Virus record (IMG/VR): IMGVR_UViG_3300035034_001787
Coordinates: 1 to 29,085 of that record
DNA length: 29,085 bases
Direction: 5' to 3' (one strand)
Source of the DNA: a virus
Shown: positions 26,175 through 29,085 of the stretch, piece after piece
Layout of the letters: each line of letters opens with the position of its first letter
Numbering within the stretch: position 1 is the first letter of the stretch
Notes under the pieces: model-generated
Databases searched by the model: none
What the model saw: the letters and a program-made list of their open reading frames with translations, nothing else
Told to the model about the DNA's origin: nothing
Program-made: the position numbers and the translations under genes

Positions 26175-26407
26175 CAGTTCTTCTCCATGTATTTCAGAAG
26201 ATCATCGTACCCGCCAACCAATTTGACGCCGTGATAGATGATCGGAATGGTCGTCATGTTAGCACGACCTGCTTCGATACGCAACTGGGAAAGTGACAGA
26301 GGACGGAGGTGATATTTCACCCCCGCCTTGTCCAGAAGTGTTGCGGCTTTGTCACACCACGAGCAGTGTTTTCCACTTTGCGTGATGATGCTATATCCTT
26401 CTATCAT
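26174..26407 (-). CDS. Glutaredoxin-like thiol reductant
   Basis: A 77-residue glutaredoxin fold protein. The active site is C15-S-W-C18 (GKHCSWCDKA), followed by the cis-Pro stretch TTIPIIYHG and the glutathione-binding-like VGGYDDL. The start used is ATG 26407, which overlaps the reductase stop as ATGA; a longer frame to 26437 would add ten residues lying within the reductase gene with no family likeness. Placed directly after a class II ribonucleotide reductase, it probably keeps the reductase's C-terminal cysteine pair reduced, in the manner of NrdH or phage glutaredoxins. The electron source is not clear from the sequence. Confidence 0.88.
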   Translation of the reverse strand: MIEGYSIITQSGKHCSWCDKAATLLDKAGVKYHLRPLSLSQLRIEAGRANMTTIPIIYHGVKLVGGYDDLLKYMEKN

Positions 26408-29085
26408 CGAATCGGACACGCACCACCTACCGTACATGCTTCGTCTTCGAGCATTTCCTCGATATCTGTTCCGGTGAAGTCCACTGGCTTCAACGTATCT
26501 GCGTAGGCCCGGAACGTTGCTTCATCGACCGGGGTTTGAGGCAGATATGGATATGAAAGTTGACGCGCAACTGCTTTTGGATCACGCACCATTGCCACAG
26601 GATCGGGACGGTACAGGAACGACACGCCGACATACGAGTCCCAGTTGGATTGCAACCAGTCGATGATCTCCGGTATTTCATCCGGGCTGTAGTAGATCGT
26701 GATCGAACAGTTGTGATCGACGTAGTGATCTTGCAACAGCTTGTAGCGATCCAGTTGGTCCAGCGCGGACTCCATGTTCACTTCCACGATTGTGCCATCC
26801 ACATCGACTTTGTCGAACTCGACATTTCCGTACTCGACCGGGATGACCACCAGACGTGCCGTAGCATCGTATGGATTTGGTTCTGTGATGAACCCCGCCG
26901 CCTCGACCGCTTTCAGGATCGGATCGTTGCCAGCGAAGTTGATCCGGTTGTACAGGAACCGGGCCAGCGGACGGTGTGCACCTTCCGCGACTTCATCCCC
27001 TTCGAGCCCGAACACTTTGGATTGTGTGCCGGAGGGCTTGACCGTCGTCACCAGTTGCGGACGCGGTGTGCCTAGTTCATCTGCCATGCCGTTCGCGCCG
27101 TCCTGTGCGACCGCGCGCAGGTCTTCCCATGCCCCAGCTTCCTTGACATACTCCCAACCGATGACACCCGTCACACCGACGCCACAGAGGCGCAGGAAGT
27201 CGTTCAGTTCGTGCCATGTGCGTTGCAGAACGCCGTCGTCCAGATTGACGCAGGTCTGTCGATAGTTGGCGCGCGCCACGAGCCAGTGTGCCCGGTGTAG
27301 TCCGTCTTCATCGCCGTTCAATCGAGACACTGCCGTCTCCACGAGATTACAGAACGACTTGTCTCCCAGCAGAATTTCTGCGCATGGGTTGACGCCTTTG
27401 AAGTAGGGGGCACGTTCCATCGCTGCGATTGCATTGATGAAGCCGGGCTCCGAACCGCCTGCCTGTTCCATCATCTTGAAGATGGTCTTCAACTCGCGGC
27501 GCGTCGGCTTGTGGTAGAACAGGAGAGAGTTGTTCGACATACCACGATGCCACATGCCGTTGTCGTTGTGGCCTTTCTTCGCCATCGCGAAGTCTTTCCA
27601 CTCGGGCTCACCATATGGATACAGAGCGATTTCAGCCGAACGGCGGGACGACAGGATCGTTCCCAGCCAGTTTTCGATGTCTAGGATGTCGATTGCGGAG
27701 AGAAGTTTTCCGGCGGCACCATTCAGGACTTCGAAGATTCCGGCTACTGCCAAAGATATTTGATAGTCGCCCGAAGATATCCAGCCGTATCCAGATAGGC
27801 GATATCCGGCGGGGCGAATCTCACTGAAGTCCACGATTAGTTTCTTGGCCCGCCCCTTGAACGCCAACATTTTCCCGAAGAATTTTGCCCAAGCCTCCGC
27901 AGAATCCCCGACTACGATGGTCCAGATTCCGGTAGTCTTGTCGAACGTCTCCACGTTTTTCGGATTACCTTTCAACGAAGGATCGGAAATGGGGTTTCCT
28001 TTTTCGTCTTTTGGTAGTTTCTTCTTGGACGTGATGATTTCGAGTTCGTCGATGTGCTGGCTGAAACCGTTCAGGACGCCGACATTGCCACGGAATCCGA
28101 CGCCGCAGCCTTGCAGGAGCAACCAGATTGTGTCTACAACATCATGTACGGTCTGGACCTCTCCAAATGCGCAGTTACCAGATACGATAGAATCTGGCAT
28201 CACAAAGGAGTGATCCTCATGATCAACTGTCAAGCACCAGCATTCTTCAGATTCAACTGGACGAACTTCTTTTACCTTCCACAGAAGCTGTTTTGTGGAC
28301 GTCGTGAAGTTCATTTTCGTTCCTTGGCGCACCCCATAGTTTGTTTGGACGTTTTCTTCGATTTCAGATACGATATAAAGCCCGAAAACCGGAGCATATT
28401 TTGAGACAAAATCTGCCGCACTAGGGTCAGAACAGAAAATTCCTGTGAACCTTGTCTCTCCACGTTGCCATTTTTTATTTGCATCTGCTGAGAAATAGCC
28501 TTGTAGGAACGCCTTGATCAGCCGCAACTCGGTGCCGTCTTCTGGTAGTGTTTTCAGATAGTGCCCAGTCCATACGAACGGGTCCCCTTGACAGGAGGGC
28601 GGATGGCTGTGCCCGAATCCCAGAGAAACGAAGCGATCCAGATATTCTGCTTTGCTTCCGCACAACCGCACGCGAGATGTTTCCGAATTACCGGAAATTG
28701 CAATACTCCCGTCCCCATACACGAAACCGTATGCCCACCAGTATTGCTCGTCTACTGGCGCTGAATCGAAGTCCCATGAATGAAACGAATCTTCTGGTGC
28801 GGCGTGCAGACGGTCTCCGACAGACAGATCAGAGGCGTAAACACGGGATTCATCGTTTAGAACCCAAGTGTGATCCACAGAAGAACGAATGGTCTTCTTA
28901 CCACGCCCACGAATCAGGTCAATTTCAACCACGGCGCGCTCACCAGCGTCCATTACCGTGGCAGGTTGCCACGATCCTGTGTGCGTGAGAACAGTGTATC
29001 TGTCTCCAGATTTACATTCCTCGAATGAGATTACACCGGAATCGGTGATGAATTTACTATCTCTTGGCAGGGGATTGAATTGTGA
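26404..29085 (-). CDS. Class II (B12-dependent) ribonucleoside-triphosphate reductase, intein-containing, 5' partial
   Basis: This enzyme reduces ribonucleotides to deoxyribonucleotides for phage DNA synthesis. The gene runs off the right edge; the frame is open to base 29085, so ATG 28953 is internal. After removal of the intein, the extein reads ...SQFN joined to CAFGEVQTV, restoring the FNCAF-type motif whose Cys is one of the redox-active pair in the Lactobacillus leichmannii enzyme (C119). Other landmarks are LLLQGCGVGF; NPCAEI (Cys codon at 27382-27384, the thiyl-radical Cys, followed by the essential Glu); SFCNL (Cys codon at 27349-27351, the second redox Cys); TVKPSGTQSKV; and the C-terminal C-T-V-G-G-A-C-P-I-R swing-arm cysteines. 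The C-extein has 589 residues, near the about 620 expected for the monomeric family. Confidence 0.93.
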   Translation of the reverse strand, partial: SQFNPLPRDSKFITDSGVISFEECKSGDRYTVLTHTGSWQPATVMDAGERAVVEIDLIRGRGKKTIRSSVDHTWVLNDESRVYASDLSVGDRLHAAPEDSFHSWDFDSAPVDEQYWWAYGFVYGDGSIAISGNSETSRVRLCGSKAEYLDRFVSLGFGHSHPPSCQGDPFVWTGHYLKTLPEDGTELRLIKAFLQGYFSADANKKWQRGETRFTGIFCSDPSAADFVSKYAPVFGLYIVSEIEENVQTNYGVRQGTKMNFTTSTKQLLWKVKEVRPVESEECWCLTVDHEDHSFVMPDSIVSGNCAFGEVQTVHDVVDTIWLLLQGCGVGFRGNVGVLNGFSQHIDELEIITSKKKLPKDEKGNPISDPSLKGNPKNVETFDKTTGIWTIVVGDSAEAWAKFFGKMLAFKGRAKKLIVDFSEIRPAGYRLSGYGWISSGDYQISLAVAGIFEVLNGAAGKLLSAIDILDIENWLGTILSSRRSAEIALYPYGEPEWKDFAMAKKGHNDNGMWHRGMSNNSLLFYHKPTRRELKTIFKMMEQAGGSEPGFINAIAAMERAPYFKGVNPCAEILLGDKSFCNLVETAVSRLNGDEDGLHRAHWLVARANYRQTCVNLDDGVLQRTWHELNDFLRLCGVGVTGVIGWEYVKEAGAWEDLRAVAQDGANGMADELGTPRPQLVTTVKPSGTQSKVFGLEGDEVAEGAHRPLARFLYNRINFAGNDPILKAVEAAGFITEPNPYDATARLVVIPVEYGNVEFDKVDVDGTIVEVNMESALDQLDRYKLLQDHYVDHNCSITIYYSPDEIPEIIDWLQSNWDSYVGVSFLYRPDPVAMVRDPKAVARQLSYPYLPQTPVDEATFRAYADTLKPVDFTGTDIEEMLEDEACTVGGACPIR
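28174..29073 (-). other. Intein (class 3-like) with LAGLIDADG-type homing endonuclease
   Basis: A 300-residue intein lies between Asn and the catalytic-pair Cys of the reductase. Block A reads PLPRDSKFITDSG (1-13), so residue 1 is Pro, not Cys, Ser or Ala. Block B has S-V-D-H68-T-W70. Block F has E-C-W-C280-L-T-V. Block G ends V-S298-G-N300, followed by Cys+1. The endonuclease part shows the two motifs YGFVYGDGS (115-123) and LQGYFSADA (190-198), with acidic residues D121 and D197 retained, so it may be active. Trp at B:12, Cys at F:4 and Thr at G:5 define class 3 inteins, which use the block F Cys as first nucleophile; here G:5 is Ser. The penultimate residue is Gly instead of His. Boundaries follow from extein conservation. 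Confidence 0.88.

What the first reader, a model, noticed from the sequence alone, without database searches (positions are those of the whole stretch)
28174..29073. Class 3-like intein starting with Pro, inserted at a redox Cys of a class II ribonucleotide reductase
The sequence shows Pro at intein position 1, so normal N-terminal S/O acyl shift is impossible. It also shows Trp two residues after the block B His, Cys at block F position 4 (E-C-W-C-L-T-V), and Ser at G:5. Class 3 inteins (known mostly from phage DnaB/terminase-type proteins) have exactly this Trp/Cys/Thr set and lack the first nucleophile. A Ser in place of Thr and a Gly in place of the penultimate His would make this a variant. 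The +1 residue is a Cys the reductase itself needs, so the enzyme is inactive until splicing. This could tie nucleotide synthesis to redox state.
Basis: partly seen in the sequence, partly recalled or inferred. Interest (0 to 1): 0.78.

Follow-up and report, generated by a model that had tools for sequence, protein, structure and literature searches.

The report
Phage intein lacking its first nucleophile
A phage gene for a DNA-building-block enzyme is interrupted by a self-splicing protein insert that has lost the usual chemical group at its front end and probably uses an internal cysteine instead; its relatives show this loss happening at least twice, which bears on how one class of self-splicing proteins arose.

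Summary
A 300-residue intein (28174-29073, minus strand) interrupts a phage class II ribonucleotide reductase between SQFN and CAFGEV. Six intein-free phage homologues read SQFN|C(S/A)FGEV, so residue 1 really is Pro. W70 (B:12), C280 (F:4), S298 (G:5), G299 and N300 are present and align with W67, C118, T137, H138 and N139 of the solved class 3 M. smegmatis DnaB intein. The +1 Cys corresponds to redox Cys119 of Lactobacillus RTPR. The active site is class 3-like, but the intein lies outside the classical class 3 clade (100/100) and has Ser for Thr. It belongs to a phage RNR intein family inserted at the same N|C site of class II and class III reductases, whose members nearly all carry Trp/Cys/Thr together with an ordinary Cys1. 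Pro1 arose in two separate lineages (one origin rejected, AU p = 0.005). In the window's lineage it accompanies loss of Thr B:7 and gain of a second Cys two residues before the block F nucleophile (C278, CWC). Most likely it splices by Cys280 attack; class 2-like attack by Cys+1 is the main rival. Redox control is plausible but untested.

The parts
29074..29085 (-). end of the N-extein, SQFN (rest of the gene is beyond the contig end)
   Evidence: empty sites in L007-L011 and L013
28174..29073 (-). whole intein, 300 aa, PLPRDS...VSGN
28798..29073 (-). N-terminal part of the HINT splicing domain (blocks A and B), residues 1-92
   Evidence: model and structural matches; split at residue 92 is approximate
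29071..29073 (-). Pro1, in place of the usual Cys/Ser/Thr nucleophile
28879..28881 (-). Ser65 (B:7), Thr in all 67 Cys1 relatives
28870..28872 (-). His68 (B:10), invariant
28864..28866 (-). Trp70 (B:12), first residue of the class 3 triplet
28288..28797 (-). LAGLIDADG homing endonuclease domain, residues 93-262 (approximate), catalytic-type Asp121 and Asp197 kept
   Evidence: Pfam LAGLIDADG_3 E 0.0013 (below Pfam cut-off)
28174..28287 (-). C-terminal part of the HINT domain (blocks F and G), residues 263-300
28240..28242 (-). Cys278 (F:2), found only in this Pro1 lineage (6 of 6)
28234..28236 (-). Cys280 (F:4), proposed initiating nucleophile
28180..28182 (-). Ser298 (G:5), Thr in classical class 3
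28174..28176 (-). Asn300 (G:7), C-terminal cyclising Asn; preceded by Gly299 (28177-28179)
28171..28173 (-). Cys+1 of the C-extein, equivalent of RTPR Cys119
26404..28173 (-). C-extein: class II adenosylcobalamin-dependent ribonucleoside-triphosphate reductase
   Evidence: TIGR02505

Best explanation
A complete, selectively maintained LAGLIDADG intein at the N|C redox-cysteine site of a phage class II RNR. It cannot make the usual N-S acyl shift because residue 1 is Pro. Most likely Cys280 (block F) attacks the Asn-Pro bond at the N-junction, giving a block F branched thioester; the N-extein is then passed to Cys+1 (the reductase's own redox Cys), Asn300 cyclises and the exteins join. It reached this class 3-like chemistry on its own, from a phage RNR intein that already had Trp/Cys/Thr as well as Cys1: once Cys F:4 could do the first step, Cys1 became dispensable and was replaced by Pro. 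Shown: boundaries, residues, fold, two origins of Pro1, position outside the classical class 3 clade. Inferred: that it splices, which Cys attacks first, and the order of the evolutionary steps.
For: Empty sites. Residue equivalence to the solved class 3 MsmDnaB1 intein by profile-profile alignment: A1/P1, H65/H68, W67/W70, C118/C280, T137/S298, N139/N300 (E 5.7e-11 for the family profile). HINT+LAGLIDADG model matches. F:4 Cys, B:10 His, B:12 Trp, G:7 Asn and Cys+1 are kept in all 6 lineage A and 4 lineage B Pro1 inteins of the alignment, and selection is purifying, so they are not decaying. Two Pro1 clades, each separately surrounded by Cys1 inteins, 2 changes across bootstrap trees, one clade rejected. 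Classical class 3 clade separate at 100/100. Loss of Thr B:7 in lineage A parallels class 3 inteins, which generally lack it (PMC6195587). Changing Cys F:4 to Ala abolished splicing in the class 3 inteins tested (PMC5222942).
Against: No splicing experiment. Cys F:4 and Trp are equally invariant in Cys1 relatives, so conservation alone does not show a switch of nucleophile. Ser replaces Thr at G:5. Cys+1 leaves direct class 2-like attack open.
Confidence: 0.7

Rival explanations
1. Class 2-like: Cys+1 directly attacks the Asn-Pro junction and Cys280 only assists, as Asp F:4 does in KlbA inteins.
For: Cys+1 is present in every member and the penultimate residue is not His, as in class 2 (KlbA: Ala1, Ser at G:6; PMC4031507); no Cys/Ser/Thr1.
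Against: F:4 is Cys, not Asp; Trp B:12 and Thr/Ser G:5 of class 3 are kept; class 2 is so far known only in KlbA (PMC4031507, PMC3196547).
Confidence: 0.13
2. Cys278 (F:2), new in this lineage, is the first nucleophile or shares the job with Cys280.
For: C278 is present in 6 of 6 lineage A Pro1 inteins and in none of 67 Cys1 or 4 lineage B ones; in a strand F:2 and F:4 face the same side (inference).
Against: C280 aligns with the proven class 3 nucleophile; lineage B lost Cys1 without gaining C278.
Confidence: 0.07
3. A dead or cleavage-only intein that has lost splicing together with Cys1.
For: Non-conservative N-terminal changes in class 1 inteins block splicing (PMC3196547).
Against: Pro1 is shared by two long-lived clades (6 and 10 distinct sequences), all other splicing residues are kept, selection is purifying, and the host RNR reading frame is intact through the intein in L014-L018.
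Confidence: 0.06
4. The true intein N-terminus is an upstream Cys or Ser, and PLPRDS is reductase sequence.
For: Only 4 upstream residues are in the window.
Against: Six intein-free homologues lack PLPRDS and join SQFN to C; intein-bearing L014-L018 show the full N-extein with no insert before SQFN.
Confidence: 0.01

Closest known systems
Classical class 3 inteins (MsmDnaB1, MchDnaB1, mycobacteriophage TerL/DnaB/exonuclease inteins)
   Same: No nucleophile at position 1 (as a rule), Trp B:12, Cys F:4, hydroxyl residue at G:5, loss of Thr B:7, C-terminal Asn; HINT fold
   Different: Separate clade (100/100); Ser for Thr at G:5; Gly not His at G:6; Cys not Ser/Thr at +1; extra Cys at F:2; sits in a ribonucleotide reductase
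Bvi IcmO class 3 intein
   Same: Class 3 signature with Cys+1 (the only one known in 2016, PMC5222942)
   Different: Different host gene; no direct sequence comparison made here
AceL NrdHF split class 3 intein (PMC7891396)
   Same: Phage-type RNR gene, atypical triplet, no His at G:6, no nucleophile at position 1
   Different: Split, no endonuclease domain inside the intein, in the RNR beta subunit (NrdHF), Met instead of Trp, Ala1, Ser+1
Phage RNR inteins with Cys1 (e.g. Vibrio phage V6Aob, Klebsiella phage FBKp34, Morganella phage MP1 NrdD)
   Same: Same N|C insertion site, same architecture, Trp/Cys/Thr set, Gly at G:6, Cys+1; direct relatives (about 29-43% identity)
   Different: Cys1 present, Thr at B:7, no Cys at F:2
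Class 2 (KlbA) inteins
   Same: No nucleophile at position 1, Cys+1, non-His penultimate residue
   Different: Cys not Asp at F:4; not in KlbA; carries Trp B:12 and Ser/Thr G:5

Membership tests
Class 3 inteins | No Cys, Ser or Thr at intein position 1 | tested here: met
   Pro1 fixed by empty sites
Class 3 inteins | Trp at B:12 | tested here: met
   W70 aligns with W67 of MsmDnaB1
Class 3 inteins | Cys at F:4 | tested here: met
   C280 aligns with C118 of MsmDnaB1
Class 3 inteins | Thr at G:5 | tested here: not met
   Ser298 in the window and L014-L017; Thr in L018 and in Pro1 lineage B. Deviations occur in 4.6% of class 3 inteins (PMC7891396)
Class 3 inteins | Ser or Thr at +1 | tested here: not met
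   Cys+1 in all members; Bvi IcmO is a known class 3 exception (PMC5222942)
Class 3 inteins | Membership of the monophyletic class 3 clade | tested here: not met
   12 class 3 references form their own side of a 100/100 branch, 100% of 200 bootstrap trees; only 137 columns and long branches
Class 3 inteins | Cys F:4 branched intermediate and absolute need for Cys F:4 | not testable with these tools
   Needs C280A and thiol-sensitive branched intermediate assays
Class 2 (KlbA) inteins | No nucleophile at position 1 | tested here: met
   Pro1
Class 2 (KlbA) inteins | Asp at F:4 and orthology to the KlbA intein | tested here: not met
   Cys at F:4; host is RTPR
Class 1 inteins | Cys, Ser or Thr at position 1 | tested here: not met
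   Pro1, although the nearest relatives outside its clade are Cys1
LAGLIDADG inteins | HINT splicing domain with inserted LAGLIDADG endonuclease, C-terminal Asn | tested here: met
   PI-PfuI Z 19.3 over 275 residues; Asp121, Asp197, Asn300
RTPR (class II RNR) host | RTPR family profile and redox Cys119 equivalent | tested here: met
   TIGR02505 396.9 bits against cut-off 340; the Cys after the insertion site, read in the intein-free homologue L007, aligns with C119 of 1l1l

The most novel reading that the evidence does not exclude
Class 3-type splicing has evolved more than once. A phage RNR intein family with two potential first nucleophiles (Cys1 and Cys F:4) has lost Cys1 independently in two lineages, outside the classical class 3 clade, showing living intermediates of a transition that was argued to be improbable. 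The window's lineage added a CWC motif that could act as a built-in thiol switch on the enzyme's maturation.
Probability: 0.5. Interest if true: 0.78.

Novelty: new variant of a known kind. Interest (0 to 1): 0.62.

Why it matters
How class 3 inteins arose is open. One view is a single phage progenitor that lost its first nucleophile and passed through a poorly splicing stage (PMC3196547); another, after grafting the triplet into gp41-1 failed to give productive splicing, is that class 3 would unlikely evolve directly from class 1 or 2 (PMC7664689). This family offers a natural series, Cys1+WCT to Pro1+WCT, twice, with lineage-specific compensating changes that can be made and tested one by one. 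It also shows one intein family at the same redox-Cys site in class II and class III reductases.

Tried and rejected
An upstream N-terminus was rejected by the empty sites. Intein-only patterns from the single window sequence found nothing in viral contigs, and the broad alignment A2 gave no usable pattern; alignments A1, A3 and A6 worked. The genome-contig scan gave one distant locus (L101), so I cannot say how common the family is in cellular genomes. Accessions tried for classical class 3 phages (Bethlehem AY500153 and NC_009878; Catera DQ398053; Omega AY129338) are not held; instead I used a class 3 DnaB intein sequence recalled from memory only as a probe to pull the real PDB sequences and phage class 3 inteins, and analysed those. 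Tori and Perler 2011 (PMC3133030) is not held. The structural prediction gave no coordinates, so the packing of W70, C280 and S298 could not be measured. Scan patterns contained the Trp for many loci; loci found only through the other pattern (e.g. L014, L017-L019, L022, L027, L037, L050, L055, L073) also all have Trp. Chance similarity and a decaying gene were rejected by E-values and selection.

Full report
What is there. ORF 26404-29085 on the minus strand (893 residues, open at the contig end) consists of SQFN, a 300-residue insert PLPRDS...VSGN (28174-29073), and a class II, adenosylcobalamin-dependent ribonucleoside-triphosphate reductase (TIGR02505, E 1.5e-118, above its cut-off). The window is a 29,085-base viral record with a phage tail and lysis module, including a tape measure protein and an amidase.

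Boundaries. Intein-free relatives of the reductase from other phage contigs read SQFN|CSFGEV or SQFN|CAFGEV (L010 reads CSFGVV; L007-L011, L013), while L012/L016 carries a 62% identical insert at the same place, also starting with Pro. Pro is therefore really residue 1 and Cys really +1. L014-L018 show the same insert in genes with their N-extein.

Fold. AlphaFold2 on the precursor (33 aligned sequences) gave pLDDT 91 and pTM 0.89. It matches endonuclease-bearing inteins (PI-PfuI, Z 19.3, 275 residues) and mini-inteins, including class 3 MsmDnaB1 (6bs8, Z 17.1) and MchDnaB1 (6riy 17.1, 6rix 16.8). In the 6bs8 row the aligned range runs from model residue 5 (Pro1) to 304 (Asn300), against chain residues 1 to 139. 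Fold similarity does not tell the class: class 1 inteins score as well. Both LAGLIDADG-motif Asp residues (D121, D197) are kept.

Active site. A profile of the family aligns with a profile of 12 class 3 inteins at E 5.7e-11, putting P1 on A1, H68 on H65, W70 on W67, C280 on C118, S298 on T137 and N300 on N139. The literature definition of class 3 is no Cys/Ser/Thr1 plus Trp B:12, Cys F:4, Thr G:5, with Ser/Thr+1 as a further feature (PMC5222942); deviations at G:5 are 4.6% among 1701 class 3 inteins (PMC7891396). The window has the first three, but Ser at G:5 and Cys at +1.

The family. Relatives in annotated phages are NrdD (class III RNR) inteins of Vibrio phage V6Aob, Klebsiella phage FBKp34 and Morganella phage MP1. 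They have the same Trp, F:4 Cys and G:5 Thr, but start with Cys1. A profile scan of viral contigs gave 80 loci. Of 77 sequences aligned (near-copies included), 67 start with Cys and 10 with Pro; all 77 have His B:10, Trp B:12, Cys F:4 and Cys+1. Some scan patterns contained the Trp, but loci found only through the other pattern also have it. So in this family the class 3 triplet goes with Cys1 as a rule. Such mixed inteins exist within the classical class 3 clade too: here a Ser1 one (L113) and a Cys1 one (L115). From memory, Tori and Perler 2011 showed that some of these splice by the class 3 route; that paper was not available, though PMC3196547 lists Catera Gp206 as a class 3 intein. A literature search found no paper joining the WCT motif with this RNR family; the library is limited to open-licence papers.

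Two origins of Pro1. In a maximum-likelihood tree the Pro1 inteins form two clades, lineage A (window, L014-L018; 100/100) and lineage B (L077, L078, L081, L087; 100/99), with 2 changes in 5-95% of bootstrap trees and never 1. One clade is rejected (AU p 0.0048). A further scan enlarged lineage B to 10 distinct sequences, all NPV..., with the same result. Lineage A sits next to Cys1 inteins L019/L022 (83/86 and 85/77 in the two trees, not strong). Unrooted counts cannot prove direction, but Cys1 rows connect both clades.

Not in the classical class 3 clade. A HINT-only tree with 12 class 3 references (DnaB, TerL, exonuclease) puts all references on one side of a long 100/100 branch and the whole RNR family, both Pro1 lineages included, on the other with class 1-type inteins of the thiyl-Cys site. 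Caveats: 137 columns, long branches, root not inferred. A profile search of the PDB also ranks gp41-1 (an engineered class 1 intein), Ssp DnaB and DnaE first and does not list the class 3 DnaB entries.

Lineage-specific changes. Lineage A has Cys at F:2 (C278, ECWC) in 6 of 6, never in 67 Cys1 relatives or 4 lineage B members; Thr B:7 is Ser/Cys in 6 of 6 against Thr in 67 of 67; Ser replaces Thr at G:5 in 5 of 6. Class 3 inteins generally lack the Thr of TxxH (PMC6195587), so lineage A has moved the same way. Lineage B keeps these positions nearly unchanged.

Insertion site. The Cys after the site, read in intein-free L007, aligns with Cys119 of L. leichmannii RTPR (1l1l); in an NrdD member it aligns with residue 79 of T4 NrdD (1h78). 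From established knowledge of the enzymes these are the first redox Cys on the first barrel strand, so the same intein family occupies the matching site in class II and class III reductases.

Mechanism. Best reading: Cys280 attacks the Asn-Pro junction, passes the N-extein to Cys+1, Asn300 cyclises, and the ends join. The block F and block G branched intermediates and the need for Cys F:4 are shown for other class 3 inteins (PMC5222942), not for this one. Cys+1 leaves class 2-like direct attack open. Redox control: DnaBi1 of M. smegmatis is switched off by a disulfide on its catalytic Cys (PMC6195587); C278 next to C280 makes something similar thinkable here, but nothing tests it.

Selection. 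Synonymous sites are saturated while non-synonymous differences are low in HINT, endonuclease and extein alike (window against L014: pN 0.18, 0.19, 0.13), so the intein is maintained.

Verdict. It most probably works like a class 3 intein, but is not filed as a member of the class 3 clade. It is a new variant: a class 3-like active site reached separately from a Cys1 phage RNR intein.

Noticed in passing
L030, L034, L087: These phage RNR genes carry a second intein starting at the thiyl-radical Cys (NP|C...), while the first sits at the redox Cys; two catalytic Cys of one enzyme are both occupied.
   Followed up: partly
L103 (Thermus phage G20c) and L105 (P23-45_stolb1): Class II RNR inteins at the NP|C thiyl site; G20c is full length, stolb1 a shortened version with the same ends (VFCFGVPTTNSFALPGFQSGN|C).
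   Followed up: no
L115:463 onward and L113:1801 onward: Acidovorax phage ACF1 TerL intein has the class 3 triplet with Cys1, and the Mycobacterium phage MoMoMixon gp212 intein has it with Ser1, so mixed signatures also occur within the classical class 3 clade.
   Followed up: partly
L101: A distant relative (Cys1, Trp/Cys/Thr set) in a proteobacterial MAG contig, in a non-RNR protein whose flank GTNN|CAFGCPVGAK looks like a GMC oxidoreductase (from memory).
   Followed up: no
L069 and L102: Related RNR inteins ending in Gly-Gln before Cys+1 instead of Gly-Asn.
   Followed up: no
L015, L017, L018: In these Pro1 inteins B:7 is itself a Cys (SCVDHTW or SCLDHTW), giving a third Cys near the active site.
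   Followed up: no
whole family: Among about 90 inteins sampled at this site position 1 is only ever Cys or Pro; no Ala, Gly or Ser was seen, unlike classical class 3.
   Followed up: no
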